A DNA stretch of 37,275 bases from an uncultured Lachnospiraceae bacterium. GTDB taxonomy: Bacteria > Bacillota > Clostridia > Lachnospirales > Lachnospiraceae. The first letter of the stretch is position 1. Each line of letters begins with the position of its first letter. The stretch lies in the NCBI GenBank assembly GCA_902781325.1, contig CACZJD010000013.1, positions 1-37,275 of the forward strand, given 5' to 3'. The translations under genes were made by a program, and so were the position numbers. The notes below the pieces were generated by a model that was not told the DNA's origin, ran no database searches, and worked only from the letters and a program-made list of their open reading frames with translations. This document shows positions 5,525-37,149 of the stretch, piece by piece.

Positions 5525-5574
5525 GACCTCTGGGGTAGTTTGTCCCCAGGTGGGGACAAACTACCCCAGAGGTC
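5525..5574. repeat. 50-bp palindromic element (first in window)
   Basis: Left arm GACCTCTGGGGTAGTTTG continues TCCCCA, a 2-base centre GG, then TGGGGA and the inverted arm. With flanks AATC/GATT the perfect stem reaches 28 bp (5521-5578). It lies between the LysR and YhfC-family genes and is the left boundary of the repeat-rich part of the window. Confidence 0.97.
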
Positions 5575-5597
5575 GATTTACACATGGAGGTTAAGCA

Positions 5598-6389
5598 ATG
5601 ACCGTAACCGTTCCGACGTTATCAATCATTTTTATGGCTGTTTCCTGCGCGGTCTGCTTTCTGACGCCGCTGGCGCTCTTTCTATATCTGCGGCTGGTGA
5701 AAAAGGCGGATGTATATCCGTTCTTCGCAGGATGCGCCGTGATGCTGCTCTTCGCCTTTATCCTGGAGTCGGGGCTGCACAATCTCGTGTTCTCCTCTCC
5801 CGCAGGGCCGGCGATCCGCGGCAGCATCTGGCTGTACGCGCTCTACGGCGGCTTTATGGCAGGGCTCTTTGAGGAGACCGGACGCTATCTGGCCTTCGCC
5901 TTCGCCCTCAAAAAATACCGTGCCAAAAATGTGAACGCCCTCATGTACGGCGCAGGACACGGCGGCTTCGAGGCGATCGTCATCACCGGTTTAACCATGG
6001 TCAACAATATTATCTGGTCTGTTATGATCAACAACGGAAGTATCTCGACAATGCTCGCTTCTCTGTCCGGCGACCAGTTGGTCCAGGCGCAGCAGTCCAT
6101 CACTCTTTTGGCCACAACACCTTCCTATCAGTTCCTGCTGGGCGGTGTTGAGCGCCTGCTGGCCATCGCGCTGCATATCGCGCTGTCAGTCATCGTCTGG
6201 TTCGCCGTCAAATGGGAGGGCAAGCTCTATCTCTATCCGGCGGCAATCCTGATCCATTTCGCTGTCGACGCTGCTGCCGCCCTTCTGTCCGGTCTGGGCG
6301 TGAACGTGATCGCTATTGAGGTTGTAGTTGCTCTCCTTACTGCTGCCGCAGTGCTCTTCGCGAGACGTTTGTGGCGGGAGACGATGTAA
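5598..6389 (+). CDS. YhfC-family intramembrane metalloprotease-like protein
   Basis: 263 residues with about seven hydrophobic segments. The motif FEETGRY (91-97), followed by GAGHGGFEA (118-126) and ALHIALS, matches the YhfC/CPBP-like group of putative glutamate-type membrane proteases, with Glu92/Glu93 and His121 as likely active-site residues. GGAGG lies 8 bases before the ATG at 5598. An overlapping reading frame starting inside the repeat is rejected. Single-gene unit bounded by two palindromic elements. Substrate unknown. Confidence 0.82.
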   Translation: MTVTVPTLSIIFMAVSCAVCFLTPLALFLYLRLVKKADVYPFFAGCAVMLLFAFILESGLHNLVFSSPAGPAIRGSIWLYALYGGFMAGLFEETGRYLAFAFALKKYRAKNVNALMYGAGHGGFEAIVITGLTMVNNIIWSVMINNGSISTMLASLSGDQLVQAQQSITLLATTPSYQFLLGGVERLLAIALHIALSVIVWFAVKWEGKLYLYPAAILIHFAVDAAAALLSGLGVNVIAIEVVVALLTAAAVLFARRLWRETM

Positions 6390-6430
6390 AGCCTAAAACG
6401 GCGTGGAAATAGCCCCAAAACGACCATTGG

Positions 6431-6480
6431 GACCTCTGGGGTAGTTTGTAGACACCTGTCTGCAAACTACCCCAGAGGTC
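6431..6480. repeat. 50-bp palindromic element
   Basis: Complete inverted pair with a centre of the TAGACACCTGTCTGC type rather than CCCC/GGGG. It lies between the convergent YhfC-family and glycosyltransferase genes, where a hairpin could end transcription from both sides. Confidence 0.95.
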
Positions 6481-6482
6481 GT

Positions 6483-7640
6483 TTAATGAGCAATCTTCTC
6501 CAAAAATGCCCGGGCTTCCTTCGCACCGCCGCAGGCATGGAAACTGTCAGAGATTAAACCCGCGTTTTCTTTAAAAGAAGGTTCTGTCAGAACCCGCGTC
6601 AGTGCCTGCAGGACATCTTCCTCTGAGATCGACTTCAGCATAATACCGGCGCCGAGTTCCTCAGTTCTCTTTGCCACTGCGCCCTGCTCCGGCGTCTGAG
6701 GGAAGAGCACCAGCGGCACCCGGAAATACAGGCCCTCGGAAGCGGAGTTCATGCCGCAGTGGGTAACAAATGCATCCGCGATCGAGAGCACTGCCATCTG
6801 ATCGACGGATTCATGAATCTCGATGTTATCCGGCACATGTTCGAAATGCTCCGTGTTCGTACCCATGGAGATGATGACCTGCCAGTCGGTCTGCCCGAGT
6901 ACATGGATGCAGTTGCGGTAGAATTCTCTGTTCTGGTTGACCGTTCCCATAGAGATGTACACAGTCTTCTCTGCTGTCTTCTCAAAAGGTTCCTTTATTG
7001 GCCGGATCGACGGTCCGATAAAATGGTACCGATCGGAAAAAGTGTCCGAACAGGGCTGGAAATATTTTGACGTGTAGACGATTGTGTTGGTCTCGTTGTC
7101 GTTCTGCACAATGTCCAGGATTCCCTTCACAGGATAGCCTTTCTCCTGCAGGCGCCTGATCTGCTTGTTGATCTTGGGCATGGTGAAGAGCATTTTCGCG
7201 ATATCCCAGGGCGTCTCCTTCATGTATTTTGCCGAATAGCGGTTGAAGGCGAAGGTCGTGGTCGAGGAAACGTACGGAAGCCCGTGCTTCATTGCGACAA
7301 GTTTGCCCCAGAAAGCGACCGAGTCCGAGACTACGAGATCCGGCTTGATCTCATGCACCTTCTCTGTTGTCATCTCGTCGAGGGCCAGCGTCGAGGAGAC
7401 GAGGAGTTCCGTGGCAAAAGCCTTATCCTTGCCGACCCTGTCGGCGTTTTCCTTGTCCTCCATCTCGAAATCATAGCCGTCACAGCCTATAAAGGCCGCA
7501 CCCGCCTGCTCGATCTTCTCCCGGAACATCTCAAATGAGAAATAGTAGACCTGATGGCCGGCTTCGGTCAGCTCTTTCACAATACCGAGTGTCGGGTTTG
7601 TGTGCCCGTGGGCAGGTATGCAGAACCATGCGATCTTCAT
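6483..7640 (-). CDS. MGT-type UDP-glycosyltransferase (GT1 family)
   Basis: 385 residues, standard for macrolide-glycosyltransferase/YjiC-like enzymes. The N-lobe opens KIAWFCIPAHGHTNPTLG with His11 in the catalytic-base position. The C-lobe carries the nucleotide-sugar motif THCGMNSASEGLYFRVPL (293-310) and PQTPEQ. AGGAGG precedes the ATG by about 7 bases. Such enzymes transfer glucose or a related sugar to small hydrophobic acceptors, often as detoxification. The acceptor is unknown. The stop codon lies two bases past a palindromic element. Confidence 0.9.
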   Translation of the reverse strand: MKIAWFCIPAHGHTNPTLGIVKELTEAGHQVYYFSFEMFREKIEQAGAAFIGCDGYDFEMEDKENADRVGKDKAFATELLVSSTLALDEMTTEKVHEIKPDLVVSDSVAFWGKLVAMKHGLPYVSSTTTFAFNRYSAKYMKETPWDIAKMLFTMPKINKQIRRLQEKGYPVKGILDIVQNDNETNTIVYTSKYFQPCSDTFSDRYHFIGPSIRPIKEPFEKTAEKTVYISMGTVNQNREFYRNCIHVLGQTDWQVIISMGTNTEHFEHVPDNIEIHESVDQMAVLSIADAFVTHCGMNSASEGLYFRVPLVLFPQTPEQGAVAKRTEELGAGIMLKSISEEDVLQALTRVLTEPSFKENAGLISDSFHACGGAKEARAFLEKIAH

Positions 7641-7696: not shown

Positions 7697-7794
7697 GACC
7701 TCTGGGGTAATTTGCATCTCTGAATGAATTTTACCATGAAAAGAGACCTCTGGGGTAGTTTGTAGACAGGTGTCTACAAACTACCCCAGAGGTC
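7697..7794. repeat. Single arm (7697-7714) plus 50-bp palindrome (7745-7794)
   Basis: The single arm GACCTCTGGGGTAATTTG has one change from consensus. The full palindrome has a near-perfect stem with centre AGACAGGTGTCT. They lie between two minus-strand genes. Confidence 0.95.
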
Positions 7795-8606: not shown

Positions 8607-8656
8607 GACCTCTGGGGTAGTTTGTGGACACCTGTCCACAAACTACCCCAGAGGTC
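8607..8656. repeat. 50-bp palindromic element
   Basis: Complete inverted pair with centre GTGGACACCTGTCCAC, itself self-complementary, between two minus-strand genes. Confidence 0.96.
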
Positions 8657-10049: not shown

Positions 10050-10099
10050 GACCTCTGGGGTAGTTTGTCCACAGGTGGGGACAAACTACCCCAGAGGTC
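10050..10099. repeat. 50-bp palindromic element abutting a gene remnant
   Basis: Complete inverted pair with centre CCACAGGTGGGG. Its left edge touches the truncated end of the S37 peptidase remnant and its right arm runs into the 3' end of the phosphoesterase gene. Confidence 0.96.
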
Positions 10100-11818: not shown

Positions 11819-11934
11819 GACCTCTTATGAAAACGACCTCTGGGGTAGTTTGTCCCCACCTGTGGAAAAACGACCTCTGGGGTGGTTTGTTCACACCTGT
11901 GGAAAAACGACCTCTGGGGTGGTTTGTTCACAGG
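11819..11934. repeat. Head-to-tail array of element arms, 37-bp period
   Basis: Three arms start at 11835, 11872 and 11909, exactly 37 bp apart, each followed by a CCTGTGGAAAAAC-like tail. A further short GACCTCT copy stands at 11819. No unique spacers separate the units, so this is not CRISPR. The third unit contains the stop codon of the adjoining gene. Confidence 0.93.
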
Positions 11935-12755
11935 GCCTCTTTAGGACAGTTCCTGACGCACTCCATGCAAAGAATGCACTCGGTACCGTTTTTCCTGCTT
12001 CTTGAATTGTCTGTCACATCCACATCCATGGGACACACACGCTTACATTTTCCACAGCCAACACATTTGTCCTTGTCGCATTTAATGCGGATCAGAGAAA
12101 AATAGCTCATTGGCTTTAAAAAGACCGTGATCGGGCAGATATATTTGCAGAAGGCCCGGTTGTCTTTCAGCGCAAATGCAAGCGCTATGCCAATGCCGTA
12201 ATAAGCAATATTTCCTATAATGAACGCCCAGAACATGATCCTTTCTATGTTCCCGACTTTTGCAAGAAACAGCGCTGATACGAAAATAAGCGACAAGGCA
12301 AATGTGATATAGCGGATCCATCCGATCTTCTTTCTCGGATGCGCCGGAACCTTGTATGGAAGAAAATCGAGTACCATTGCCGTCCAGCAGGCATAGCCGC
12401 ACCAGCCGCGTCCAAATACCAGGGGGCCGAATATTTTGGCAACTGCATAATGGATCGTCGCCGCTTCGAATACGCCCGTGAAAAGATAGTACCAGAAACC
12501 CTCGATCTGCATATTTTCGCGGCAGATCAGCCCGAGATAGACAAGCATGTACAGGCCGACGAGCAGTTGAACGATGCGCCTGGCATATTTGTATTTGTTT
12601 ATAAACAGGAATAGCCCGAGAGATATCGACAGCCCGATATAACTGAAGTTGAACAAATAGAATATATTGTTCTTCGTCAGCCACAATGTCACAGCTACGG
12701 CTTCAAAAACGATCAGTATGATCAGCGGTTGTAAGTATTGCCTGAATTGTTTCAT
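11928..12755 (-). CDS. NapH-like membrane ferredoxin protein with two [4Fe-4S] motifs
   Basis: 275 residues from ATG 12755. The N-terminal two-thirds holds about five membrane helices with GWCGYACW in a cytoplasmic loop, as in NapH/MauN/CcoG-like proteins. The C-terminus carries two ferredoxin motifs: CVGCGKCKRVCP and CILCMECVRNCP. It probably passes electrons between the membrane and a soluble redox partner. The only Shine-Dalgarno-like sequence is GAGGTC from the flanking repeat. The TGA stop also lies inside a repeat arm, so both ends of the gene touch elements. Confidence 0.86.
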   Translation of the reverse strand: MKQFRQYLQPLIILIVFEAVAVTLWLTKNNIFYLFNFSYIGLSISLGLFLFINKYKYARRIVQLLVGLYMLVYLGLICRENMQIEGFWYYLFTGVFEAATIHYAVAKIFGPLVFGRGWCGYACWTAMVLDFLPYKVPAHPRKKIGWIRYITFALSLIFVSALFLAKVGNIERIMFWAFIIGNIAYYGIGIALAFALKDNRAFCKYICPITVFLKPMSYFSLIRIKCDKDKCVGCGKCKRVCPMDVDVTDNSRSRKNGTECILCMECVRNCPKEAL

Positions 12756-12768
12756 GTTTAACGACCTC

Positions 12769-12835
12769 GACCTCTGGGGTAGTTTGTACCCACCTGTGGA
12801 AAAACGACCTCTGGGGTAGTTTGTTCTCCACGGGC
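12769..12835. repeat. Two head-to-tail element arms, 37-bp period
   Basis: Arms at 12769 and 12806 are in the same orientation, joined by ACCCACCTGTGGAAAAAC. They lie just upstream of the NapH-like gene and directly downstream of the YdcF-like gene. Confidence 0.93.
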
Positions 12836-13663: not shown

Positions 13664-13747
13664 AACCTCTGGGGTAGTTTGTCCACACCTGGGTATACCT
13701 GGGTATAAATCGACCTCTGGGGTGGTTTGTCCACACCTGTCCATAAA
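13664..13747. repeat. Two degenerate head-to-tail element arms
   Basis: Arms at 13664 (AACCTCTGGGG start, one change) and 13712 (GGTGGTTTG form) are separated by a duplicated CCTGGGTATA. A short GACCTCC fragment precedes them at 13654. Confidence 0.85.
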
Positions 13748-13771
13748 CGGTCCCTCTTTGGCTGTTGAGGA

Positions 13772-14770
13772 TCAATCCGCCATATGGTATCCGTCCCTTA
13801 CATGACGAAGGTCCGCCTCCATTTCGGCGGCATCGGTCCAGCCGGAAAAGGATTGGGTATAAGAAAAACCATGGCTATATCCGAAATTAAAGCCCTGCAG
13901 GCTTCCATACCCGGCTGTCAGAATACCGTCTGCCGGTATTTTTAAATCAGTATAGCGGCAGGCCTCGTAGCTGGTTAAGACTGATCCGTCTGCGCGTGTA
14001 ACTTTTACCTCATAGGTATCGTATAGCACGTTGTACTCATATGAAGTGTTATCGTCCGAAATGAACAGGTACATCCGGTAAGGAGTACAAATCATATCCT
14101 GAGCAAACGATGAGGAAACGATGTCCTCCCAGTCCTCGCTGATGAGGCGTTCAGTGTTGGCGTGAATCTTGTTGAGGTTGTCTTCGCTCAGTTGATCAGT
14201 ACTCGTCACCCAGGCTGTGAGTCCCTCTACCGTGAACTGTTTCTCGGAAGGATCAAAGCGCCAGCCAAGTGGGGCCTGTGCCTTCACCGTGACTGCATCG
14301 CCGTTGCTCAAGCCGGTATCCGGTGTAACTTCGAATTTAGCTCCATCTGTATACTCCGCATTGCGGTCGGAAATCTGCAGCTCTGCCCTGCCTTTGCCGG
14401 ACATGCCGGAAAACTTGACAATCACAGTTGTAAACGGATCAGCTGTGCGGGGAAAGGCAAGCTCATGCATCGGAGAGCCGGGAATAGCCACATTGATGAG
14501 ACAGATTGCTGCGATCACGCAAAAAGCGATGAGCCAGCCTTTCAGCCGACGCTTGCGCTGTCTTTTCGTCTGCAGATCCTTGATGTCCTCCTCGGCACGG
14601 GCCATCGCTATTCGCCGCTCATATTCCTGCTGCGCGGTGTCATCCGTATCGATGAGCATTTCATGCCCGCAATACGGGCATACGGCCTTTTCTCCATCCG
14701 TCGACAGTTCCATTCTTCCTCCGCAGGAGGGACAAACAAGCGATAGTGTCTTCGTGATTTTTTGTTCCAT
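13772..14770 (-). CDS. Zinc-ribbon membrane protein of unknown function
   Basis: 332 residues. CPSCGG and CPYCGH (about 13-36) form a C4 zinc ribbon. A basic linker TKRQRKRRLKG precedes one membrane helix (about 78-96). The C-terminal two-thirds is probably extracellular, with beta-rich sequence and no family I can name. AGGAG lies 12 bases before the ATG, a rather long spacing. Similar zinc-ribbon, single-helix proteins are common in Clostridia; a second, different one is at the right end of this window. Confidence 0.75.
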   Translation of the reverse strand: MEQKITKTLSLVCPSCGGRMELSTDGEKAVCPYCGHEMLIDTDDTAQQEYERRIAMARAEEDIKDLQTKRQRKRRLKGWLIAFCVIAAICLINVAIPGSPMHELAFPRTADPFTTVIVKFSGMSGKGRAELQISDRNAEYTDGAKFEVTPDTGLSNGDAVTVKAQAPLGWRFDPSEKQFTVEGLTAWVTSTDQLSEDNLNKIHANTERLISEDWEDIVSSSFAQDMICTPYRMYLFISDDNTSYEYNVLYDTYEVKVTRADGSVLTSYEACRYTDLKIPADGILTAGYGSLQGFNFGYSHGFSYTQSFSGWTDAAEMEADLRHVRDGYHMAD

Positions 14771-14850
14771 GTTGATGCTGGTCTCCTAATTCTGTAATTT
14801 AGCCTGTTGCGATGACCTGGCGACCTCCTGACCTCAACCTCTGTGACCTC

Positions 14851-14928
14851 GACCTCTGGGGTAGTTTGTCCACACCTGTCCACAAACTACCCCAGAGGTC
14901 GGTTATTCCTCAAAGTACCCCAGAGGTC
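14851..14928. repeat. 50-bp palindrome (14851-14900) plus single arm (14911-14928)
   Basis: The palindrome is complete with centre CCACACCTGTCCAC. The single inverted arm, CAAAGTACCCCAGAGGTC, overlaps the 3' end of the next gene. Short GACCTC/GACCTCC fragments precede it from 14821. Confidence 0.95.
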
Positions 14929-15751: not shown

Positions 15752-15769
15752 CAAACCACCCCAGAGGTC
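15752..15769. repeat. Single inverted element arm
   Basis: CAAACCACCCCAGAGGTC, the GTGG variant of the arm, with no matching left arm nearby. Confidence 0.85.
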
Positions 15770-16689: not shown

Positions 16690-16739
16690 GACCTCTGGGG
16701 TAGTTTGTCCCCATCTGGGGACAAACTACCCCAGAGGTC
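16690..16739. repeat. 50-bp palindromic element
   Basis: Complete inverted pair with perfect arms and centre CCCCATCTGGGG, between two minus-strand hypothetical genes. Confidence 0.97.
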
Positions 16740-16759: not shown

Positions 16760-17506
16760 CTATTCCCTATCTTCAAGCACGGTCACATTGTAGTAGGCAT
16801 TGTTGTAATCTTCATTCTCAAAATCATTCACGAATTCCGGGTGAATCACGAAGGCCTTCCCGTCAGGCGTGTGAAGTCTTGTGTCTCTGTCAAAGAAAAC
16901 GCCCTGCCCGCCATAATAGATCATCTGTTCAATGACCTTCATATAATCATGGGTCCTTTCCTCCGGAACATCGTCAATCCCGATGTCCGGCCTTCCGAAC
17001 TCAGCCATTCCCCTGGTATGAAGCCAATATTTTGCCCCTTCTTTAGAGTAAAGAATGACCACATGTCTCAGGACATCGACTTCTTTGTCAAAATATTTCT
17101 CCGTCCACTGTTCGGGCGAATACAGTGCGATGGTCTGCGGATCAAGTATGCCTGCGGCTCCTTTGTCGATAAAAGCCTGAATGATGCCTATCGCATTCCG
17201 CATATAATCAAGCGTGCTGTCGTTTATTACAGTACCCTGCAGGATCACACATGCCTTCGCTTCTTTGCATCGCTTCAGCAGATCTGCGTTTGCTGCTTCC
17301 AGCACCTTCCCCATCGGACCGGTGAGGAACCCGTCCATATAGTCTCCATGCTGGTCCCTTGTCAGAGTTCGCAGGTCAAGACCTTCCGGAAGTTCATCTA
17401 CTTTGTGCCTCTTCTGAGACACCTCCAGATCTTCACCAGTTACACCGTAGATCACGTAGAACAGGAATGGTTTGTAGCCTATGTCTTGGTAGTACTCTCT
17501 TTTCAT
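16760..17506 (-). CDS. Hypothetical cytosolic protein, 248 residues
   Basis: AAGGA stands about 5 bases before the ATG at 17506. The sequence contains GIIQAFIDKGAAGILDPQT and YWLHTRGMAEFGRPDIG, reminiscent of DUF4261-type proteins, but I am not certain of the family. No signal peptide or membrane segment. No operon partner: palindromic elements stand on both sides. It lies in a run of small hypothetical genes (14.9-17.5 kb). Confidence 0.65.
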   Translation of the reverse strand: MKREYYQDIGYKPFLFYVIYGVTGEDLEVSQKRHKVDELPEGLDLRTLTRDQHGDYMDGFLTGPMGKVLEAANADLLKRCKEAKACVILQGTVINDSTLDYMRNAIGIIQAFIDKGAAGILDPQTIALYSPEQWTEKYFDKEVDVLRHVVILYSKEGAKYWLHTRGMAEFGRPDIGIDDVPEERTHDYMKVIEQMIYYGGQGVFFDRDTRLHTPDGKAFVIHPEFVNDFENEDYNNAYYNVTVLEDRE

Positions 17507-17545: not shown

Positions 17546-17595
17546 GACCTCTGGGGTAGTTTGTCCCCATTTGGGGACAAACTACCCCAGAGGTC
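17546..17595. repeat. 50-bp palindromic element
   Basis: Complete inverted pair with perfect arms and centre CCCCATTTGGGG. Confidence 0.97.
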
Positions 17596-19202: not shown

Positions 19203-19252
19203 GACCTCTGGGGTAGTTTGTCCCCAGGTGGGGACAAACTACCCCAGAGGTC
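19203..19252. repeat. 50-bp palindromic element
   Basis: Complete inverted pair, perfect arms, centre CCCCAGGTGGGG, identical in core to the one at 5525. Confidence 0.97.
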
Positions 19253-20018: not shown

Positions 20019-20068
20019 GACCTCTGGGGTAGTTTGTCCCCAGGTGGGGACAAACTACCCCAGAGGTC
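20019..20068. repeat. 50-bp palindromic element
   Basis: Complete inverted pair, perfect arms, centre CCCCAGGTGGGG. A GACCTCGACATTT-type fragment precedes it. Confidence 0.97.
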
Positions 20069-21490: not shown

Positions 21491-21598
21491 GACCTCTCGA
21501 CCTCTGGACCTCTGGGGTAGTTTGTCCCCATATGGGGGGTTGCTTCGCGACCTCTGGGGTAGTTTGTCCCCATATGGGGACAAACTACCCCAGAGGTC
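21491..21598. repeat. Duplicated element: partial copy (21507-21536) and 50-bp palindrome (21549-21598)
   Basis: TTGCTTCGCGACCTCT occurs twice (21482 and 21540), each followed by an arm and TCCCCATATGGGG, so a stretch of nearly 60 bp was duplicated in tandem. The second copy keeps its inverted arm; the first has lost it. Confidence 0.92.
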
Positions 21599-21631
21599 AA
21601 ATTTCGCCATGTCGAGGTCCAAGTCTTCTCG

Positions 21632-22042
21632 TCAGATAATGATTCCCTCAAGATGATCTATCTCATGTTGGATGATCTGCGCGGTCCAACCGCTGTACTT
21701 CTTCCGCTGCTTTTTCCAGGCAGCGTCAAAATATTCAACTTCTATATTTTGATAGCGGGTTGTCTTCCGGACTCCTTCCAGTGACAGACATCCTTCTTCT
21801 GTTTGGTAGGATGTGTCCTTGTGAACTATTACCGGGTTATACATCACAACATTCATGAACCCTATATTCACAATAATGATTCTTTTGCGGATACCAATCA
21901 TATTTGCCGCCATGCCTACGCAGCGATCCTGATTGGCGCGCAGCGTGTCTTGCAGGTCCTGCCCCACAGGGAAGTCCTGCTTCGTTGCAGGCTCTGACTT
22001 TTGGCCAAGGAAGAAAACATCTCTAACTATTTTTTGAACCAT
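21632..22042 (-). CDS. def: Peptide deformylase, divergent short form
   Basis: 136 residues, shorter than the usual 150-190. Motif 2 EGCLS (Cys85) and motif 3 HEIDH (His126, Glu127, His130) keep all metal and catalytic residues. Motif 1, normally GxGLAAxQ, reads CVGMAANM, so the conserved Gln is Met48. GGAGG stands 5 bases before the ATG. It would remove formyl from the N-terminal methionine of new proteins. Because of the Gln change it may be a secondary paralogue of the housekeeping enzyme. Confidence 0.85.
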   Translation of the reverse strand: MVQKIVRDVFFLGQKSEPATKQDFPVGQDLQDTLRANQDRCVGMAANMIGIRKRIIIVNIGFMNVVMYNPVIVHKDTSYQTEEGCLSLEGVRKTTRYQNIEVEYFDAAWKKQRKKYSGWTAQIIQHEIDHLEGIII

Positions 22043-22087
22043 TGGCGCCTCCTGTGATAATTCTGCCTCAATGGTCTCAATGGTCTG

Positions 22088-22137
22088 GACCTCTGGGGTG
22101 GTTTATCCCCACCTGTCCACAAACCACCCCAGAGGTC
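22088..22137. repeat. 50-bp palindromic element, GTGG/CCAC form
   Basis: Both arms carry GGTGGTTT/AAACCACC in place of GGTAGTTT/AAACTACC, so the stem stays paired. Centre TCCCCACCTGTCCAC. Confidence 0.95.
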
Positions 22138-22703: not shown

Positions 22704-22870
22704 GACCTCTGGGGTAGTTTGTCCACATCTGTCCACAAACCACCCCAGAGGTCGAGGTCGAGGTTCTGGGGTAGTTGGGGTAGTTTGTCCACATCTGTCC
22801 ACAAACCACCCCAGAGGTCGAGGTTGGGTTGGAGGTTGAGGTTGAGGTCGATGGTCGACAAAGGTCGAGG
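22704..22870. repeat. Two palindromic elements followed by GAGGTY-rich tandem tract
   Basis: A complete element (22704-22753, left arm GTAG form and right arm CCAC form) is followed by a second (22764-22819) whose left arm has a GTAGTTGGGG duplication. Then comes a 50-bp tract of GAGGTC/GAGGTT/GGGTT-like hexamers, apparently expanded from the arm's outer end. Confidence 0.9.
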
Positions 22871-23103: not shown

Positions 23104-23197
23104 AAATGACCTTAGAGGTCATTTTAAAATACCCACCTGAGGACAAACTACCCCAGAGGTCGTTCAACAGACAGAGGTCGTTCAACAGAGGTCGTTT
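23104..23197. repeat. Element remnants in front of the RAYT gene
   Basis: A short palindrome AAATGACCTTAGAGGTCATTT (23104-23124; arms of about 8 bp) is followed by a right half-element (23134-23161) and two tandem copies of CAGAGGTCGTTCAACAG-like sequence. They form the 5' border of the transposase gene. Confidence 0.85.
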
Positions 23198-23222
23198 AAA
23201 AAAGAAAGGAAAGCCTGCATCT

Positions 23223-23984
23223 ATGCCATCTCGTCCACGCGAAATCAGTTCTCTCGGTATTTATCATGTTGTCTATCGCGGCGTCAACAAGCAGCGTATA
23301 TTCGAAGATGATGATGATTACGGCAAGTTTTTGACAGTTCTTCGTAAATATCAGCCGATCTGCGGCTATAAGATCATCGCTTATTGTCTGATGTCCAATC
23401 ATATTCATCTGCTCATTAAGCCTGGCGAAATACCGTTGTCCAGGATTTTTCAGCGTGTCATTCCCAGTTTTGTGTACTGGTATAACAAAAGATACGAGCG
23501 AGTCGGCAGTCTCTTCCAGTCCCGTTTCAGAAGCAGGCCGGTCAACACCATCTCGCAGCTCTTCACCGTTATCAGATACATTCATCAAAATCCGATCAAG
23601 GCGGCGATTTGTGAGCACCCCGAGCAGTATCGCTATAGTAGTTATAAAAACTATTTTGGCAGCGATCTGATCGACAACAGCTTCGTGCGTTCAATGGTCA
23701 ATGAAGAGTTTTTCTTCAGTTATAACTGCACTGAAAACGATGATCAGTGTCTGGATATTGACGACGAGCGCCCGAGGATGAAGGATGAGCGCGCCGTGAA
23801 TATCATGCAAAGGCTCTCCGGTTGCAGCAATGTAACGGAGTTCCAACAGCTCGACGTTAAGTTGCGTAACGAGGTGCTTTACGATATGTGGATGGCCGGC
23901 GTCTCGGTCAGCCAGGCTAACAGGGTTACAGGGATCTCGTACGGCGTAATCAGGAAGGTAATCGCGTCGGCGAGGCATAGATGA
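23223..23984 (+). CDS. REP-associated tyrosine transposase (RAYT, Y1/HUH family)
   Basis: 253 residues from ATG 23223. The HUH motif is SNHIHLL (His60, His62). The catalytic tyrosine is most likely in RYSSYKNYFG (Tyr141 or Tyr144), and YIHQNPIKAAI (119-129) is the hallmark of TnpA_REP/Y1 proteins. The C-terminus (about 180-253) is a helix-turn-helix-like domain (VSVSQANRVTGISYGVIRKV), present in longer RAYTs. GAAAGGA lies about 13 bases upstream. Such proteins nick single-stranded hairpins and mobilise REP or REPIN sequences. The gene is bracketed by repeat arms and its TGA stop is the first three bases of TGACCTCTG. It is the only transposase seen here. Confidence 0.93.
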   Translation: MPSRPREISSLGIYHVVYRGVNKQRIFEDDDDYGKFLTVLRKYQPICGYKIIAYCLMSNHIHLLIKPGEIPLSRIFQRVIPSFVYWYNKRYERVGSLFQSRFRSRPVNTISQLFTVIRYIHQNPIKAAICEHPEQYRYSSYKNYFGSDLIDNSFVRSMVNEEFFFSYNCTENDDQCLDIDDERPRMKDERAVNIMQRLSGCSNVTEFQQLDVKLRNEVLYDMWMAGVSVSQANRVTGISYGVIRKVIASARHR

Positions 23985-24079
23985 CCTCTGCCCATTTCCA
24001 TTTATGACCTCTGTGACCTCTGCCTCTGTGACCTCTGAGGTAGTTTGTCCACACCTGTCCACAAAGTACCCCAGAGGTC
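23983..24079. repeat. Arm fragments and 50-bp palindrome behind the RAYT gene
   Basis: GACCTCTG fragments at 23983, 24006 and 24015 lead into a full palindrome (24030-24079) with one change in each arm (CTGAGG on the left, AAAGTACC on the right). These form the 3' border of the transposase gene. Confidence 0.92.
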
Positions 24080-25618: not shown

Positions 25619-25716
25619 GACCTCTGGGGTAGTTTGTCGCCTCAATCGACCTCTGGGGTAGTTTGTCGACACCTGTGGAAAAACGACCTCTGGGGTAGTT
25701 TGTCGACACCTGTCTA
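25619..25716. repeat. Three head-to-tail element arms
   Basis: Arms at 25619, 25648 and 25685. The last two are 37 bp apart with a TCGACACCTGTGGAAAAAC-type junction; the first is truncated to a 29-bp unit beginning CCTCAATC, which is duplicated. Confidence 0.92.
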
Positions 25717-26409: not shown

Positions 26410-26427
26410 GACCTCTGGGGTAGTTTG
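26410..26427. repeat. Single element arm
   Basis: GACCTCTGGGGTAGTTTG without a partner, just past the DUF4342 stop codon. Confidence 0.9.
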
Positions 26428-26456
26428 CTGATAATTAAATTAAAAGACATCTAAGA

Positions 26457-26515
26457 GACCTCTGGGGAGGTTTGCGGACACCTGTCTACAAACCTCCCCA
26501 GAGGTCTCTATTTTT
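26457..26515. terminator. Covarying palindromic element (26457-26506) with T-rich tail
   Basis: This 50-bp copy has GGGGAGGTTTG on the left and CAAACCTCCCC on the right, so the departure from consensus is matched in both arms. The stem ends GAGGTCTC and is followed by TATTTTT, giving a plausible Rho-independent terminator for the rightward DUF4342 gene. Terminator activity is inferred. Confidence 0.7.
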
Positions 26516-26516
26516 C

Positions 26517-26547
26517 CACATATGGGGGACAAACTACCCCAGAGGTC
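26517..26547. repeat. Right half-element overlapping a stop codon
   Basis: CCACATATGGGGG then ACAAACTACCCCAGAGGTC. Its last bases form the TGA stop of the minus-strand DUF1349-like gene. Confidence 0.88.
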
Positions 26548-27175: not shown

Positions 27176-27340
27176 GACCTCTGGGGTCATTTGTCCATTT
27201 GCCATGTCCTGGGACAAGAGACCTCTGGGGTGGTTTGTCTTTATTGCTATATTCACACTATCACGATTCACTATCTTTTTCCACAAGTGGGGACAAACTA
27301 CCCCAGAGGTCTCTTTTATCCGCGCAGAGGTCTCTTTTAT
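27176..27340. repeat. Degenerate element and an element split by 40-60 bp of other sequence
   Basis: A decayed copy lies at 27176-27216. A left arm (GTGG form) at 27220-27237 finds its right arm only at 27291-27313, so the pair is split by unrelated AT-rich DNA. After it, CAGAGGTCTCTTTTATCCGC is repeated in tandem. Confidence 0.8.
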
Positions 27341-27401
27341 CCGCCACCAAAAGCATCTATAATCTAGTGTGTATAAAATCAAAATATCGACACAACCGCA
27401 G

Positions 27402-27419
27402 CAAACCACCCCAGAGGTC
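27402..27419. repeat. Single inverted element arm
   Basis: CAAACCACCCCAGAGGTC, 26 bp ahead of the start codon of the ketopantoate-reductase-like gene. Confidence 0.88.
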
Positions 27420-28352: not shown

Positions 28353-28497
28353 GACCTCTGGGGTAGTTTGTCCCCACCTGTGAAAAAAAGACCTCGACCT
28401 CTGGGGTAGTTTGTCCACACCTGGGGAAAAAGACCTCTGGGAAAAAAGACCTCTGGGGTAGTTTGTGGACAGGTGTCCACAAACTACCCCAGAGGTC
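28353..28497. repeat. Three same-strand arms and a 50-bp palindrome
   Basis: Arms at 28353, 28396 and a truncated one at 28432 lead into the full palindrome 28448-28497 with centre GTGGACAGGTGTCCAC. The joints are CACCTGTGAAAAAAAG and CACCTGGGGAAAAAG, variants of the 37-bp array junction. Confidence 0.93.
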
Positions 28498-28507: not shown

Positions 28508-29476
28508 CTACAGAAACGCATCCAGCACCTTATGCGTCTTCAGAGAATCCTCCTCTGTCAGGATTCCCAGTTCCTCCAGCCTCTCGACCAGTTCTTCCCG
28601 GACTCCTGCTGCCGTCTCACAGTCCTCCGCTGTCAGCGAAATCTCCGTGATAAACCGACTCTCGCCGGACTCCGAATCAGGGATCTCCCAGACCTCAATC
28701 TGCACTTTAGAACCCCCGAATTTTCCATTATATCTGTCAAAAAATACAGGCCCGGCCATCTGTGCCGATTCAAGCGCTTCATTGCCCCATTGTACGGTTC
28801 CCCAGTCCCGCTCCTCCACAGGAATGTGCTGCTCCAGCATGTAACGTCCCTCATTAGGCGTCAAATACGCTATGCTCTCCTGTCCGCCGGAATCAACGTC
28901 TTCTTTGAGCGAAATACTCAGCGTCATACTCGAAAATCCCCACTCAACCTGCGCTACCCAGCTTTCTCCGGATAAGTCAAAACCTTCCTCCCCGGCGCGC
29001 CGTACAGCTTCGTCAACGTCCGTCCCGGATACGGGGTACCGCTTTTTATATGTCAGTTCAAACCCTTTGTCAGCCTTTCCCTCCTGCATCCTGATCCGAT
29101 TGATCCAGCCCTCTCGCTCAAAAACTCTATCCGTTCCGTCGTAATATACCACTCCAAATCTCTTGATCTTCTTGCCTGTATCAAATTCGCTGCGGATTTC
29201 CTTTTTCAACTTGTGATCTTCATCCAACACAGCATCAGAATCCAGCAAAAAATGGATCTCCGTCTCAATTTTTTGACCGCTCCACTTCTGAAAGTCATCA
29301 TCCGACCTCTGGGGTACTTTGTCCTGAGTTGACGATTCGGTCGAGACCATTGTCTTTTCAGTAGTACCTCCGTCCTCCATGTCAGCAGGCGTTTTTGCCC
29401 CAAACAATGCACACGCGGCCAGATTTGCTGCAAGCGCAGCACAGATAATTAGTATCGGGATCTTCCTTTTTTTCAT
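28508..29476 (-). CDS. Predicted lipoprotein with CYTH-like C-terminal domain
   Basis: 322 residues from ATG 29476 (MKKRKIPILIICAALAANLAA), with GGAG about 10 bases upstream. A signal peptide ends in the lipobox LAAC, Cys22. The body from about residue 68 shows E-T-E, an RIRM strand and TYKKR, the kind of charged tunnel pattern seen in CYTH/triphosphate-tunnel proteins, but this is a weak match. Residues 52-58 (DKVPQRS) are encoded by an element arm inserted in frame in the linker between lipid anchor and domain. Function unknown. Confidence 0.7.
   Translation of the reverse strand: MKKRKIPILIICAALAANLAACALFGAKTPADMEDGGTTEKTMVSTESSTQDKVPQRSDDDFQKWSGQKIETEIHFLLDSDAVLDEDHKLKKEIRSEFDTGKKIKRFGVVYYDGTDRVFEREGWINRIRMQEGKADKGFELTYKKRYPVSGTDVDEAVRRAGEEGFDLSGESWVAQVEWGFSSMTLSISLKEDVDSGGQESIAYLTPNEGRYMLEQHIPVEERDWGTVQWGNEALESAQMAGPVFFDRYNGKFGGSKVQIEVWEIPDSESGESRFITEISLTAEDCETAAGVREELVERLEELGILTEEDSLKTHKVLDAFL
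29304..29324. repeat. Element arm inside a coding sequence
   Basis: GACCTCTGGGGTACTTTGTCC lies within the lipoprotein gene, one base off the arm consensus, and keeps the frame open as DKVPQRS. Confidence 0.9.
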
Positions 29477-29501
29477 TTTTTCCCTACTCCTGTGTGCAAA
29501 T

Positions 29502-29620
29502 GACCTCTGTGCAAATGACCTCTGGGGTAGTTTGTCCCCACCTGGGGTGTAACGCTCCGGGCCAATCAACCTCTGGGGTGGTTTTGGGGTGGTTTGGCCC
29601 CACCTGTGGAAAACGCCCTC
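29502..29620. repeat. Degenerate same-strand arms
   Basis: Arms or fragments at 29502, 29517 and 29568, then a GGGGTGGTTTTGGGGTGGTTT stutter from slippage, and a GGCCCCACCTGTGGAAAACG joint. Confidence 0.85.
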
Positions 29621-30502: not shown

Positions 30503-30589
30503 GACCTCTGGGGTAGTTTGTCCACACCTGTCCATAATCGACCTCTGGGGTAGTTTGTCCACATCTGGGGACAAACTACCCCAGAGTTC
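30503..30589. repeat. Same-strand arm (30503) plus 50-bp palindrome (30540-30589)
   Basis: The arms start 37 bp apart. The palindrome has centre CCACATCTGGGG and one change at its right end (GAGTTC). Confidence 0.94.
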
Positions 30590-31657: not shown

Positions 31658-31762
31658 GACCTCTGGGGTGGTTTGTCCACACCTGGGGTCAAACGACCTC
31701 TGGGGGGGTTGTGGACAGATGTGGAATAATCATCGTCTGGGGACAAAATACCTCAGAGGTCG
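31658..31762. repeat. Two same-strand arms and a decayed right half
   Basis: Arms at 31658 (GTGG form) and 31694 (TGGGGGGGTT, damaged) are followed by GGGGACAAAATACCTCAGAGGTC. In this last part the change CAAACTACC to CAAAATACC creates a copy of the dispersed GNCAAAATA 9-mer. Confidence 0.85.
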
Positions 31763-33265: not shown

Positions 33266-33351
33266 GACCTCTGGGGTAGTTTGTCCCCAGATGGGGATTT
33301 TTCCACACCTGAGGACAAACCACCTCAGAGGTCGAGGTCACCCAGAGGTCG
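33266..33351. repeat. 68-bp long-centre element (33266-33333) and a short fragment
   Basis: Left arm, then CCCCAGATGGGGATTTTTCC and ACACCTG, then a right arm with two changes. Identical in length and centre design to the copy at 35682-35749; the two flank the M13 peptidase gene. A CCCAGAGGTC fragment follows at 33341. Confidence 0.92.
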
Positions 33352-33359: not shown

Positions 33360-35582
33360 TTACCATATCAATACCCTGTCTTCCGGCGCCAGATACATCC
33401 CGTCGCCCTCCTTGATGCCATATGTGTCAAGGAATTCGTCAAACTGCTGAAGCGTCACATTGATGCGCTGGTAACTGAGCGGATGCGAGTCTGAAGTCGC
33501 CAGCCATTCACACATCTGAAGGGTGTCCATCCTCTGCCACATGCGCGCGTACGCGCGGAAGAATTTGTCATAATCGAATCCGTCAATCTTCTCAGCCATC
33601 AGAAGCACGCACTTGATGCCGCCCATATCGGCCGTCGCCTCGGTGTTCACGAGCTTGCCGCTGTTAGGCGTTCCGTCGTCGAAGGGCACTATTTTGTCAA
33701 AATACGCAATAACCTTGCCCGTTCTCTCATCAAACGCCGCCTTGTCCTCAGGGGTCCACCAGTTGTTAAAGTTTCCAGCCGCATCGTACTGCGCTCCGCC
33801 GCTGTCAAACGCGTGCGAGATCTCATGCCCGATCACGCCGCCGAGCGCGCCATATTTCTCTTCGATCGACATATCGCTCCTGTACGTGACATCGCAGAAA
33901 AAGCCGGGAATAATATTGATCGAATTATCTTTGGGCTCATAGTAAGCATTTGTCTCGATAATATCGATATCGCCCCAGAGTTCTTTGTCAACCGACCCAT
34001 TCATTCTGCCGACATCCCGCTGCTTATCAGCTGCCGCGCGATCCAATCTGGCTGTCAAAATATCGCCATCCTCATTCACAGAATAAATCGAGTAGTCCTC
34101 CCATTTGTCCGGATAGACGGCATGAATTGCTATGGCGTCCAGCTTGTTCTGGGCCGCCTCCCGGGTCTCGGCCGAGAGCCAGTCCGTCTTGGCAAGCATC
34201 TCTCTGTAAGTGTCAATCACATCCTCGCAGATCTGCCGAATCTCCTCCCGCACAGACTCGTCCAGATACTGCCTTACATACAGCCGCCCGAAACTGTCGC
34301 GGAACATACCGCGCGTACTCGTATAAGCCCGTGTCTCATCCGCGGGCACCTGCGTCAGTCCATAAAACTCCATATACTGCTTGATATACTCGCGATACGC
34401 AGCCTCGTCCAAATACTGCATGCTGCCCAGCAGAATATTCACCAGGATTTTGTCCCGCAGTGCCTCAGCGTTCTCCTCCGTGAAGAGGGCGTCGAGTTCC
34501 TTCAGCGCACCAGGCTGCAAAACATTGATCCGCTCAGCCTCGCTCCAGCCATCCCTCTCCATGATCTCTGCCAAAGGATAGTTCGGGGTCATCTCACGGA
34601 TCTGATCCATTGTGACCGGATTGACCGTCCCCTGAAGATAGGAAGGATCCTGCGTCTCCACTAACGGCGTCACATACTCCGCAAGCCGGGCGTCCAGCTC
34701 GTTGACATTGTCGATCGCCTTCTGCGCCTCCTCTTTGGTCAGGCCGACCCTTTCCAGCATGTAGGAAGCGAGGGATTCTTTCTGTTTTTTGACACGTTTG
34801 CCGTTCTCCGTAATCTTCCTGTACTCCGCGGCATCCTCCAAAAGCAGATTTGTCGGTCCAAGATTCACCTGGTACAGGCCGGAATCCTGCGTATACTTGT
34901 CCAGCCCGATCGGCACCAGCGCCGGCGCGTCCTGTGTGCTGAACCGCGCATATGTGTCGGACAGCAGGAAACTGCGCAGGTCATCCAGCGTTTTCACAGA
35001 TTGAAGAGCCTCCACGGCCGGCATGACAGGCGCCAGCCCCGCCTCATTCCTGCTCTCCCAATCCAAAAACTGATGATAATAATTCTGGATCAGCTCCGCG
35101 TCGTGACCCTCAGGTCCCTCAAGCTCTTTCAGCGGCTCATCGGCCAAAATAGTCATACAGCGCTCTTTCATCGTATCAACAGCCTGATACCAGGGCGTAG
35201 CGGACGGCCTCCCGGGGTACAGCTCCGCATCCCGCAGCCAGTCATGGTTGACCGCCAGATAAAAATCATCCTTGATATCCGCGGTCACATCGTCAGTGAC
35301 AAGCCCATAGATATTAGCATTGATCCAGGGCTTCATTACCGACGTGTCGATGCCAGCGACCTCTGCGACCTCTGGGGTAGTTTGTTCGTCGGCGGCCTCT
35401 GGTTCACCGGAGACCTCTGGGGTAGTTTGCCCGCCATGTTCGCCGGAGACCTCTGGGGTGGTTTGTGGGGTGGTTTGCTCACTTCCCGCCTGCCCTGCAG
35501 CCCCGGTTTGGCTGCCGCATCCGGCTACTGCACCGGCAGCCAGCACGCACACACATAAAAACGCTAATACTCTCTTCTTCAT
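33360..35582 (-). CDS. M13-family (neprilysin/PepO-like) zinc metallopeptidase lipoprotein
   Basis: 740 residues from ATG 35582, with GGAGGG about 4 bases upstream. A signal peptide ends in lipobox VAGC (Cys22), so the enzyme is anchored outside the membrane. The zinc motif GHEISHAFD has His586, Glu587 and His590; the third ligand Glu648 is in NTEATAD. It would cut oligopeptides. Residues 36-72 between anchor and catalytic domain contain three in-frame TTPEV units that are element arms read as protein. The gene is flanked by the only two 68-bp elements in the window. Confidence 0.93.
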   Translation of the reverse strand: MKKRVLAFLCVCVLAAGAVAGCGSQTGAAGQAGSEQTTPQTTPEVSGEHGGQTTPEVSGEPEAADEQTTPEVAEVAGIDTSVMKPWINANIYGLVTDDVTADIKDDFYLAVNHDWLRDAELYPGRPSATPWYQAVDTMKERCMTILADEPLKELEGPEGHDAELIQNYYHQFLDWESRNEAGLAPVMPAVEALQSVKTLDDLRSFLLSDTYARFSTQDAPALVPIGLDKYTQDSGLYQVNLGPTNLLLEDAAEYRKITENGKRVKKQKESLASYMLERVGLTKEEAQKAIDNVNELDARLAEYVTPLVETQDPSYLQGTVNPVTMDQIREMTPNYPLAEIMERDGWSEAERINVLQPGALKELDALFTEENAEALRDKILVNILLGSMQYLDEAAYREYIKQYMEFYGLTQVPADETRAYTSTRGMFRDSFGRLYVRQYLDESVREEIRQICEDVIDTYREMLAKTDWLSAETREAAQNKLDAIAIHAVYPDKWEDYSIYSVNEDGDILTARLDRAAADKQRDVGRMNGSVDKELWGDIDIIETNAYYEPKDNSINIIPGFFCDVTYRSDMSIEEKYGALGGVIGHEISHAFDSGGAQYDAAGNFNNWWTPEDKAAFDERTGKVIAYFDKIVPFDDGTPNSGKLVNTEATADMGGIKCVLLMAEKIDGFDYDKFFRAYARMWQRMDTLQMCEWLATSDSHPLSYQRINVTLQQFDEFLDTYGIKEGDGMYLAPEDRVLIW
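35367..35484. repeat. Three element arms inside the M13 peptidase gene
   Basis: Arms at 35367, 35412 and 35448 lie in the same orientation, the last followed by a partial GTGGGGTGGTTTG. All are in frame and read QTTPEV on the coding strand (residues 36-45, 52-57, 67-72). Confidence 0.93.
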
Positions 35583-35605
35583 TATGCCCTCCTTTTGTTG
35601 CAATC

Positions 35606-35776
35606 GACCTCTGGGGCTTGTCCAATCGACCTCTGGCTTGTCCAATCGACCTCTGGTGTCCAATCGACCTCTTGTCCAATCGACCTCTGGGATCATTTGT
35701 CCCCAGATGGGGATTTTTCTACACCTGGGGACAAACCACCCCAGAGGTCCAGAGGTCGAGAAATCCTCAGAGGTCG
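35606..35776. repeat. Collapsed tandem arms and a 68-bp element (35682-35749)
   Basis: CCAATCGACCTCT recurs at intervals of 22, 21 and about 17 bp with progressively shorter tails, a series of deletions in a same-strand array. It ends in the 68-bp element, then GAGGTC fragments up to 35776. Confidence 0.9.
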
Positions 35777-35786
35777 AGGGGCCCCT

Positions 35787-37055
35787 TTATTTTTTCCTGA
35801 TCTCCGTTATCACCCAGTCATCCTCCGCAGCGTGGTATTCCCTGCCGCAATAGGGACAATCCCTCACATGCATTGCATCGAAAGATCCTCCGCAATTCCC
35901 GCAGTTAACTGCGTGGATGCTGAATCCCGGGTCCGTGACAGTGCCGATCTTCCGCTCCATGCGGACCAGAATCCTCTCGTTTTTCCTCTTTACGCGGCCG
36001 CTCCCGCCGCTCTCCGCCAAGCCATCTGCGTAACAATTTGCCGTAAACACATCGAGAAGAATAGAGATGCGCCCGCTCCTCTCTTTGAACTCTTTCAGTT
36101 TATAAGCGCCCCTGTAGTCCAGATCGATCAGATTATCAAAAGCGGAAAGATCTCCTTTCCCCTCATAAATACTCAGGCTGTCACGGTCATCGCTGTATAG
36201 GACCGCTTGCAGGAGCGAGACCAGTTTCCCCTCAAATATCCTGCCAAAATAGTAAGGATCGTACTTTTCCATCCTGGCCTGCAATTTTTTGGCAGATCCC
36301 GCTGCGCCCAACATAGGGAGGACACTCCCGAGCTCAAGGAACAACTTCCCCATCAGGAAGAATGAATAACCCATATAGGTAAAGAAGGTCATCACCACCG
36401 CTGACAGCCCTGCCAGAAAAACATAGTACAGAGCCGCGCCCCACAGAGGCAGTTCCTGATTGTTTCTGCCAAGTACAATGGCCAGCACAAGGAAGACCAG
36501 AAAAAAGACGATCGCGGCTCTCGTGAACATCCGCTTCATCCTTTCGTCGAAGCCAAACCGCTCAACAATGTCGTTCGCGCAATAACAGGATGAAATGCGC
36601 GGATAGAGCTCACTCATGGAAAAATGTGTGCCGCAGAACGGGCACCCTTCTTCCAACCTGGACGCCATCGTGGCATTGCCGCAGTTCGGGCAATTGACCG
36701 CCACGTCCCTGCTGCCCTCCCGGTCCACGATCGTCGCATAGAAACCAACCGGATCCCGGTGATGCAGGATTCTCTTCTCGCCGCGATAAAAATCCCTGAT
36801 CCGCACAGTTTCCCTATAAGCTGTCACCCCCCGAAAAGGCGTCCGATTGTTCTTCGGTGAAGCCTCTATCGCGCCTGTAACCGCAGCAGCGTCAAAAACA
36901 TACTCCTCACTCATCGTGAGACCTTTTTTCTGCAGCCTATCCTGCTGCTCGTCCATGCAGAACCGCAGATCCCGCGTGATCTTGTCAGGAATCTCCCCTT
37001 TACCGGTCTTTATAAGAAATGCGTCTGTCATCGAGAGATACTTGTCTGTATTCAT
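35787..37055 (-). CDS. Zinc-ribbon membrane protein with TIM44-like domain
   Basis: 422 residues from ATG 37055, with AGGAAGG 6 bases upstream. A zinc ribbon CPNCGN...CPFCGT (about 122-142) precedes two membrane helices (about 185-205 and 215-245). The segment after them (DPYYFGRIFEGKLVSLLQAV through LLDVFTANCYADGL) resembles the bacterial TIM44-like domain. A second ribbon CGNCGG...CPYCGR is near the C-terminus. Such proteins occur in many Clostridia without a known role. No operon partner visible. Confidence 0.75.
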   Translation of the reverse strand: MNTDKYLSMTDAFLIKTGKGEIPDKITRDLRFCMDEQQDRLQKKGLTMSEEYVFDAAAVTGAIEASPKNNRTPFRGVTAYRETVRIRDFYRGEKRILHHRDPVGFYATIVDREGSRDVAVNCPNCGNATMASRLEEGCPFCGTHFSMSELYPRISSCYCANDIVERFGFDERMKRMFTRAAIVFFLVFLVLAIVLGRNNQELPLWGAALYYVFLAGLSAVVMTFFTYMGYSFFLMGKLFLELGSVLPMLGAAGSAKKLQARMEKYDPYYFGRIFEGKLVSLLQAVLYSDDRDSLSIYEGKGDLSAFDNLIDLDYRGAYKLKEFKERSGRISILLDVFTANCYADGLAESGGSGRVKRKNERILVRMERKIGTVTDPGFSIHAVNCGNCGGSFDAMHVRDCPYCGREYHAAEDDWVITEIRKK

Positions 37056-37088
37056 GTTTTGCCTTCCTGTCTCGAAAACGACCTCAAC

Positions 37089-37149
37089 GACCTCTGGGGT
37101 GGTTTGTCCCCACCTGTCCACAAGCGACCTCTGGGGTGGTTTGTCCCCT
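37089..37149. repeat. Two head-to-tail element arms, 37-bp period
   Basis: Arms at 37089 and 37126, both GTGG form, with the joint CCCCACCTGTCCACAAGC. Last elements in the window. Confidence 0.92.

What the first reader, a model, noticed from the sequence alone, without database searches (positions are those of the whole stretch)
5525..37149. Dense family of 50-bp palindromic elements in nearly every intergenic space, with a resident RAYT
About seventeen complete inverted pairs and dozens of single arms (GACCTCTGGGGTAGTTTG and its inverse) occupy the gaps from 5.5 kb to the window end, roughly one locus per kb, while the only transposase present is a RAYT flanked by the same arms. Known REPIN/RAYT systems are mostly described in Gammaproteobacteria; one this dense in a Clostridia-like genome, with 18-base outer arms, may be undescribed. 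The sequence shows the repeats and the RAYT; that the RAYT moves them is inference from the family.
Basis: partly seen in the sequence, partly recalled or inferred. Interest (0 to 1): 0.92.

Follow-up and report, generated by a model that had tools for sequence, protein, structure and literature searches.

The report
Repeat islands around a RAYT transposase
A rumen gut bacterium carries short DNA palindromes packed between neighbouring genes around a gene for a small transposase-like enzyme, and single genes appear to come and go at these palindromes, which makes the region a candidate gene-shuffling zone built on an otherwise known type of repeat system.

Summary
In detail: 73 arm copies (0 in shuffles), 17 fifty-base palindromes, and a core in 27 of 31 gene gaps, around one intact RAYT. 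It is a RAYT/REP system in an uncultured rumen Lachnospiraceae genus; across species only a 12-base core, GACCTCTGGGGT, is shared.

Copies sit in islands, mostly around RAYT genes; twelve 20-kb stretches elsewhere held one core. Occupied and empty sites exist.

The new part: gene order in island contigs is unstable, with 47 gene-scale differences in 284 kb aligned, against about one in 130 kb for two control stretches; in 25 of 33 clean cases a core lies within 35 bases of the empty junction. No integron integrase passes its cut-off in 8 genomes.

Spread of the repeats by the RAYT is well supported but inferred. Whether the RAYT or homologous recombination moves genes is open. RAYT-proximal REPs and double-foot REPs are already published: a new variant of a known kind.

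The parts
23220..23984 (+). RAYT gene (Y1 HUH transposase, 254 aa from the ATG at 23220; the mechanical ORF starts at 23106 inside a repeat arm)
   Evidence: Pfam Y1_Tnp 1.9e-12; NHIH and YIHQNP motifs, no stops
23144..23161 (-). arm just upstream of the RAYT
24030..24079 (.). 50-base palindrome just downstream of the RAYT
5525..5574 (.). 50-base palindrome, first element of the island
6431..6480 (.). 50-base palindrome
7745..7794 (.). 50-base palindrome (single arm at 7697-7714 before it)
8607..8656 (.). 50-base palindrome
10050..10099 (.). 50-base palindrome
11835..11926 (+). three head-to-tail arms, 37-base period
12769..12823 (+). two head-to-tail arms, 37-base period
13664..13729 (+). two head-to-tail arms
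14851..14900 (.). 50-base palindrome (further arm at 14911-14928)
15752..15769 (-). single arm
16690..16739 (.). 50-base palindrome, left side of a gene absent at this site from G003, G033 and G084
16760..17506 (-). gene present only in the window at this site; one palindrome stands there in G003, G033 and G084
   Evidence: no Pfam match
17546..17595 (.). 50-base palindrome, right side of that gene
19203..19252 (.). 50-base palindrome; G084 carries about 1.5 kb extra here
20019..20068 (.). 50-base palindrome; centre differs in G033
21549..21598 (.). 50-base palindrome (further arm at 21507-21524); centre differs in G033
22088..22137 (.). 50-base palindrome
22704..22753 (.). 50-base palindrome (further arm at 22802-22819)
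25619..25702 (+). three head-to-tail arms
26410..26547 (.). 50-base palindrome at 26457-26506 with single arms on both sides
27176..27419 (.). four scattered arms
28353..28497 (.). head-to-tail arms and the 50-base palindrome 28448-28497
29304..29321 (+). single arm inside a reading frame
29517..29585 (+). two arms
30503..30589 (.). arm and 50-base palindrome 30540-30589
31658..31761 (.). diverged arms
33266..33333 (.). 68-base inverted pair of arms
35367..35465 (+). three arms inside the reading frame of an M13 peptidase
35682..35749 (.). diverged inverted pair with stepwise truncated copies beside it
37089..37143 (+). two head-to-tail arms, last of the window
11864..12832 (-). block with a 4Fe-4S protein gene; in G033 it sits at another place of the island
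13748..14851 (-). block with one gene, absent at this site from G033
21530..22085 (-). block with a peptide deformylase gene, absent at this site from G003

Best explanation
The region is a RAYT/REP island. The RAYT at 23220-23984 is a Y1 HUH enzyme that acts on hairpins formed by single-stranded copies of its cognate repeat, and it has spread them preferentially near its own gene until most gene gaps hold one. In this island the repeat looks like a double-foot REP: arm, GTAG or GTGG foot, short hairpin, inverted foot and arm; head-to-tail arms occur too. The dense repeats then serve as break and join points, so that single genes together with an element are gained, lost or moved. Shown: the repeats, their islands, the association with the RAYT, occupied and empty sites, and gene-scale differences that meet at elements. 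Inferred: that the RAYT made the copies, that it prefers nearby sites, and the chemistry. Undecided: whether genes move by the RAYT or by homologous recombination between copies.
For: RAYT clade and repeats co-occur: 12 of 12 against 2 of 49 genomes with at least 12 cores. Clustering: in G077 84 of the 100 cores listed (of 105) lie on the three contigs with a RAYT hit; in G069 33 of 52 lie within 20 kb of a RAYT hit; G084 C32 has 72 of 88 cores in its first 25 kb with the RAYT at 9.0-9.8 kb. Repeat variants differ with the RAYT. Empty and occupied sites. Gene-scale differences at elements: 25 of 33 clean cases; permutation on 31 distinct junctions 22 against 14.2 expected, p 0.001. Unbroken or nearly unbroken order in two control stretches. 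Related enzymes cut single-stranded REPs at CT (PMC8266576, passages).
Against: NCBIfam's REP-associated model hits below its cut-off, 63.4 against 80 bits. G068 and G024 have 17 and 19 cores without a close RAYT. G013 C3 holds an island without a RAYT hit on its contig. Four close RAYTs (G077_b, G005_a, G022_a, G078_b) have no core in the flanks held, 1 to 6 kb a side. Eight of 33 clean gene-scale differences are not at an element. The GT[AG]G foot is typical only of island A in G000, G003 and G084. No single cut site shows in the truncated copies.
Confidence: 0.75

Rival explanations
1. The RAYT makes the repeats, but all gene-scale changes are ordinary homologous recombination: the shared elements serve as homology anchors for deletion between neighbours and for import of DNA from related species.
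For: At empty sites one element overlaps both ends of the missing block by 27 to 59 bases, as a crossover between two copies would leave it. The elements are alike across species.
Against: Homologies are short. At 16760-17506 both flanking centres in the window (TCCCCATCTGGGGA, TCCCCATTTGGGGA) differ from those of the empty sites (TCCACACCTGTGGA, TCCACAGGTGTGGA), where a simple crossover would leave mixed ones; conversion among copies could also explain this.
Confidence: 0.5
2. The islands are regions where gene turnover is high for other reasons, and the repeats merely pile up there because insertions are tolerated.
For: Association does not show cause; island contigs were chosen because they hold the repeat; 8 of 33 clean differences are not at elements.
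Against: Within contigs that have few elements, 13 of 19 junctions fall in gaps with an element against 6.0 expected, p 0.0002, with rough gaps. Islands centre on RAYT genes.
Confidence: 0.25
3. A chromosomal integron: single-gene cassettes with palindromic attachment sites moved by an integron integrase.
For: Mostly co-oriented single genes each separated by a palindrome, gained and lost one by one.
Against: No match over the cut-off of the integron integrase model in 8 of 8 genomes searched; the below-cut-off hits also occur in all 14 control genomes. No recombinase among the 34 window proteins scanned. The assemblies are incomplete. Co-orientation also holds in the repeat-free first 4 kb.
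Confidence: 0.03
4. The 12-base core is a DNA uptake sequence, whose inverted pairs often serve as terminators.
For: Short, highly repeated, frequently in inverted pairs.
Against: Uptake sequences are spread over a genome (recalled); here 12 stretches of 20 kb held one core while the islands hold dozens, and presence follows the RAYT.
Confidence: 0.02
5. Assembly or binning artefact: contigs of another organism in an incomplete bin.
For: The genome is a MAG, 82% complete, 4.9% contamination, 219 contigs.
Against: Matching islands in other bins of the genus (G003, G013, G033, G084); window 1-6390 is collinear at 94% with G013.
Confidence: 0.03

Closest known systems
REPtrons: RAYT genes with cognate REPs/BIMEs in Gammaproteobacteria (Nunvar 2010, PMC2817692: passages and section 8 seen; Quentin 2018, PMC6006769: passages and section 13 seen)
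   Same: Y1 HUH enzyme with HUH and Tyr motifs, flanked by many palindromes; repeat families follow the enzyme; REPs piled up near the rayt gene reported for three marine gammaproteobacteria and Thauera (section 8); double-foot GT[AG]G repeats reported for subclass 2.4 (section 13).
   Different: Lachnospiraceae; a 12-base core shared by several RAYT types while foot and hairpin vary; several sharp islands in one genome; single-gene turnover at the repeats.
REPINs of Pseudomonas fluorescens (Bertels and Rainey 2011, PMC3116915: passages seen)
   Same: Inverted repeat pairs forming one hairpin as the main unit, with singlets and tandem arrays beside them.
   Different: One symmetric 50-base element with a single short central hairpin; islands in place of a genome-wide spread.
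Chromosomal integron cassette arrays (recalled)
   Same: Single genes separated by palindromic sites and gained or lost one by one.
   Different: No integron integrase over the cut-off; near-perfect symmetric sites; a RAYT in the island.
IS200/IS605 insertion sequences (recalled; Y1_Tnp)
   Same: Same enzyme superfamily; hairpin ends.
   Different: No multi-copy transposase-bearing element seen: one copy of RAYT A and one of its 69% relative in the own genome, many enzyme-less repeats.

Membership tests
RAYT / TnpAREP | Y1 transposase domain with HUH and tyrosine motifs | tested here: met
   Pfam Y1_Tnp; NHIH and YIHQNP
RAYT / TnpAREP | Passes NCBIfam's REP-associated tyrosine transposase cut-off | tested here: not met
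   63.4 bits against a cut-off of 80, E 2e-17; the model is an equivalog model, so a distant member may miss it
RAYT / TnpAREP | Gene flanked by palindromic repeats | tested here: met
   arms at 23144-23161 and 24030-24079; 14 of 18 RAYTs of the close clade have cores within the flanks held
RAYT / TnpAREP | Many enzyme-less copies of the repeat in the genome | tested here: met
   223 exact 12-mers in the own genome
RAYT / TnpAREP | Repeat presence follows RAYT presence | tested here: met
   12 of 12 against 2 of 49
RAYT / TnpAREP | GT[AG]G foot beside the hairpin | tested here: inconclusive
   28 of 35 copies around RAYT A in G000 and 29 of 37 in G084, but a minority around RAYT B and in G036_a, G078_A and G025_a
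RAYT / TnpAREP | Cuts single-stranded REP | not testable with these tools
   needs purified enzyme
TnpAREP subclass 2.6 or 2.4 | Place in the published subclasses | tested here: inconclusive
   motifs NHIH and YIHQNP fit the table row of subclass 2.6 while the island A repeat fits the double foot of 2.4; reference sequences were not compared
Integron cassette array | Integron integrase gene | tested here: not met
   0 of 8 genomes over the TIGR02249 cut-off; assemblies incomplete
Integron cassette array | attC sites with the known boxes | not tested
   no attC model was run
DNA uptake sequence | Genome-wide spread | tested here: not met
   one core in 240 kb of 12 other contigs

The most novel reading that the evidence does not exclude
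The RAYT itself shuffles genes: it cuts single-stranded elements on either side of a gene and rejoins them, so that each gene plus one element behaves as a mobile cassette, giving an integron-like gene-exchange island run by a domesticated HUH transposase in place of an integrase.
Probability: 0.17. Interest if true: 0.92.

Novelty: new variant of a known kind. Interest (0 to 1): 0.62.

Why it matters
What RAYTs and their repeats do for their hosts is an open question. Here, inside one uncultured genus, there are several RAYT types, repeat islands with sharp edges, relatives without either, and gene gain and loss concentrated in the islands. This makes two ideas directly testable: that a RAYT seeds repeats near its own gene, and that the repeats act as join points for swapping single genes between species.

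Tried and rejected
A single sharp cut site in the core (GACCTCT/GGGG, which would fit the published CT cleavage) was tested by where truncated copies end. Left truncations spread over match lengths 5, 6, 7, 8, 9 and 10 (44, 91, 27, 45, 21 and 6) and right ones fall off smoothly from 4 (105, 42, 24, 13, 9, 5, 2), so no one site is shown.

The integron reading was tested and disfavoured, the uptake-sequence reading fails on the island distribution.

The permutation test used rough ORF gaps: some reading frames run through elements, so a junction lying on a core could be scored as a miss (for example G033 C85 at about 8601). In the dense window alone a position test is weak, because 68% of intergenic bases already lie within 30 bases of a core.

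The first RAYT tree held one row translated on the wrong strand (G069_b). It was dropped and the tree rebuilt with 19 rows: A and B are separate supported groups, the deeper order is unsure and long rows meet.

Of the 19 'absent' rows, by eye about 11 look real (some the same site seen in two genomes); the rest are chance cores in coding sequence, an N run, or badly aligned stretches. The 227 'shared' rows count most clusters twice, once from each genome.

Paper searches listed no description of RAYT/REP islands in Lachnospiraceae. Only that open-licence library was searched, only listings were seen for most papers, and one search listed only papers on unrelated subjects. One exact arm was found in one viral contig. 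A plasmid search with the RAYT gave 16 records, all under 60% identical. No solved structure matched by sequence at E 0.001.
Full report
Observation. The arm GACCTCTGGGGTAGTTTG occurs 73 times (up to 3 mismatches) from 5525 to 37143 and never in 100 shuffles. Seventeen complete 50-base palindromes with a variable 14-base centre are found; other copies are head-to-tail arms, single arms, or stepwise truncated copies. A core lies at 27 of 31 gaps between hand-called genes. Folded as single-stranded DNA the element is one hairpin, -28.2 kcal/mol, z -11.2.

The enzyme. The protein read from 23220 is an intact Y1 transposase (Pfam PF01797, 1.9e-12) with NHIH and YIHQNP motifs. NCBIfam's REP-associated model hits it below the cut-off, 63.4 against 80 bits. 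It is the only transposase or recombinase found among 34 window proteins scanned. The own genome has two relatives, 69% and 33% identical.

Who it is. That they are rumen bacteria is my reading of the RUG names, not a tool result.

Association. Among 61 same-genus genomes the exact 12-base core GACCTCTGGGGT is present in 18 and absent in 43. Twelve of the 61 have a RAYT match at least 49% identical over most of the protein, and all 12 have at least 12 cores (12 to 235). Of the other 49 only G024 (19) and G068 (17) reach 12; G010, G007, G014 and G079 have 1 to 7 (Fisher p 5e-11). The cut at 49% was chosen after seeing the data. No genome-wide count was made for the RAYT-free genomes with other repeat families.

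Islands. In G077 84 of the 100 cores listed (105 in all) lie on the three contigs with RAYT hits, one of them a fragment at a contig end; in G069 33 of 52 lie within 20 kb of a RAYT hit, one of these a partial gene. G084 C32, 87.8 kb, has 72 of 88 cores (up to 1 mismatch) in its first 25 kb, with a RAYT at 9.0-9.8 kb, and a smaller group near 50-62 kb. Twelve 20-kb stretches of the window's own genome held one core; they came from contigs without listed hits. The first 60 kb of G013 C3 have 68 cores and no RAYT hit lies on that contig. Accumulation near the rayt gene is already published for three marine gammaproteobacteria and Thauera (PMC2817692, section 8).

Variants. Around RAYT A the core runs on as GTAG or GTGG in 28 of 35 copies in G000 and 29 of 37 in G084. 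Around RAYT B, and in G036, G077, G078 and G025, the following bases differ, so that only the core is shared. Four close RAYTs (G077_b, G005_a, G022_a, G078_b) have no core in the flanks held. Double-foot REPs with GT[AG]G at both ends are known from subclass 2.4 (PMC6006769, section 13).

Mobility of the repeats. In collinear alignments 227 rows show an element in both genomes and 19 in one only; by eye about 11 of the 19 look real, for example a whole palindrome in G033 C7 that G000 C81 lacks, and palindromes in G013 C3 and G033 C65 that G000 C41 lacks. At two sites G033 carries a GGGGACGGTTCT palindrome where G000 carries this family. So most elements are shared between these species and a minority have moved since they parted. 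At orthologous sites the centre can differ while staying self-complementary, for example at 20019 and 21549 against G033 with both flanks matched.

Gene turnover. Window and relatives share a backbone, but blocks differ. The gene at 16760-17506 is missing at this site in G003, G033 and G084, where one palindrome stands in place of two; the only other match listed for it was in G020 (76%), and that listing was cut. 13748-14851 is missing in G033 and 21530-22085 in G003; 11864-12832 sits elsewhere in the G033 island; the gene at 6483-7640 matches another contig in G033. Over the island-bearing contigs compared with four genomes there were 47 differences of at least 300 bases in 284 kb aligned. 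They are not independent: the same site can count once per genome. Thirty-three were clean; 25 of these have a core (up to 2 mismatches) within 35 bases of the empty junction, and 16 have elements at both occupied ends too. Eight of 33 were not at elements. Control: two of the twelve non-island stretches (C1 and C5, the only two searched) gave about 130 kb aligned over up to four genomes and one gene-scale difference, by my tally; G033 had no match to C1. The two counts were made by slightly different methods and island contigs were chosen because they hold the repeat, so the contrast, roughly twenty-fold, shows association and not cause. On 31 distinct junctions 22 fall in gaps with an element against 14.2 expected, p 0.001; on contigs with few elements 13 of 19 against 6.0, p 0.0002; both with rough gene gaps.

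Mechanism. The simplest account is a RAYT that copies its hairpin repeats near its own gene; the E. coli and Stenotrophomonas enzymes cut single-stranded REPs at CT (PMC8266576, passages). That dense repeats then seed gene gain and loss fits the data; by the RAYT or by homologous recombination is open. The overlap of one element at empty sites fits both. The matched centres on both sides of 16760-17506, unlike those of the empty sites, fit a block arriving with its own ends slightly better. No integron integrase passes its cut-off in 8 genomes.

Verdict. A real, dense RAYT/REP island system in a lineage for which the searched library listed no report, with an association with gene turnover that I have not seen described in the passages read. 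A new variant of a known kind.

Noticed in passing
G033 C18 and C65 (L058, L061) against G000 C41 (L065); also L030, L034, L036: A second palindrome family with GGGGACGGTTCT arms occupies two of the sites that this family occupies in G000, and lies beside more distant RAYTs.
   Followed up: partly
L028:1318-1365 (G022 C172): The RAYT of G022 (56% identical) is flanked by a different palindrome of similar layout with ACCTTTAAGGCAGCG arms, perhaps another cognate repeat.
   Followed up: no
window 35367-35465 and 29304-29321: Arms lie in frame inside coding sequence: QTTPEV repeats in the N-terminal linker of an M13 peptidase, and one arm in the ORF 28508-29569.
   Followed up: no
window 35600-35760; G077 C42 (L097, L098): Stepwise truncated copies of flank plus arm stand side by side, and G077 has 17-base head-to-tail core arrays; their origin is unexplained.
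   Followed up: partly
window 27441-28330 and 10845-11177: A frame that looks like a broken reductase gene and a short methyltransferase-like fragment (names recalled from the letters, not from a search) suggest decaying genes in the island.
   Followed up: no
window 14851-14900 and 22088-22137: Palindromes with mixed centres (left half of one type, right half of another) are shared at the same sites by up to four genomes, as if halves had recombined long ago.
   Followed up: no
window against G033 C85: Neighbouring blocks of the island differ widely in identity to the same relative (76 to 97%), against 83 to 92% for the larger blocks of the control stretches, which could mean block-wise exchange between species.
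   Followed up: no
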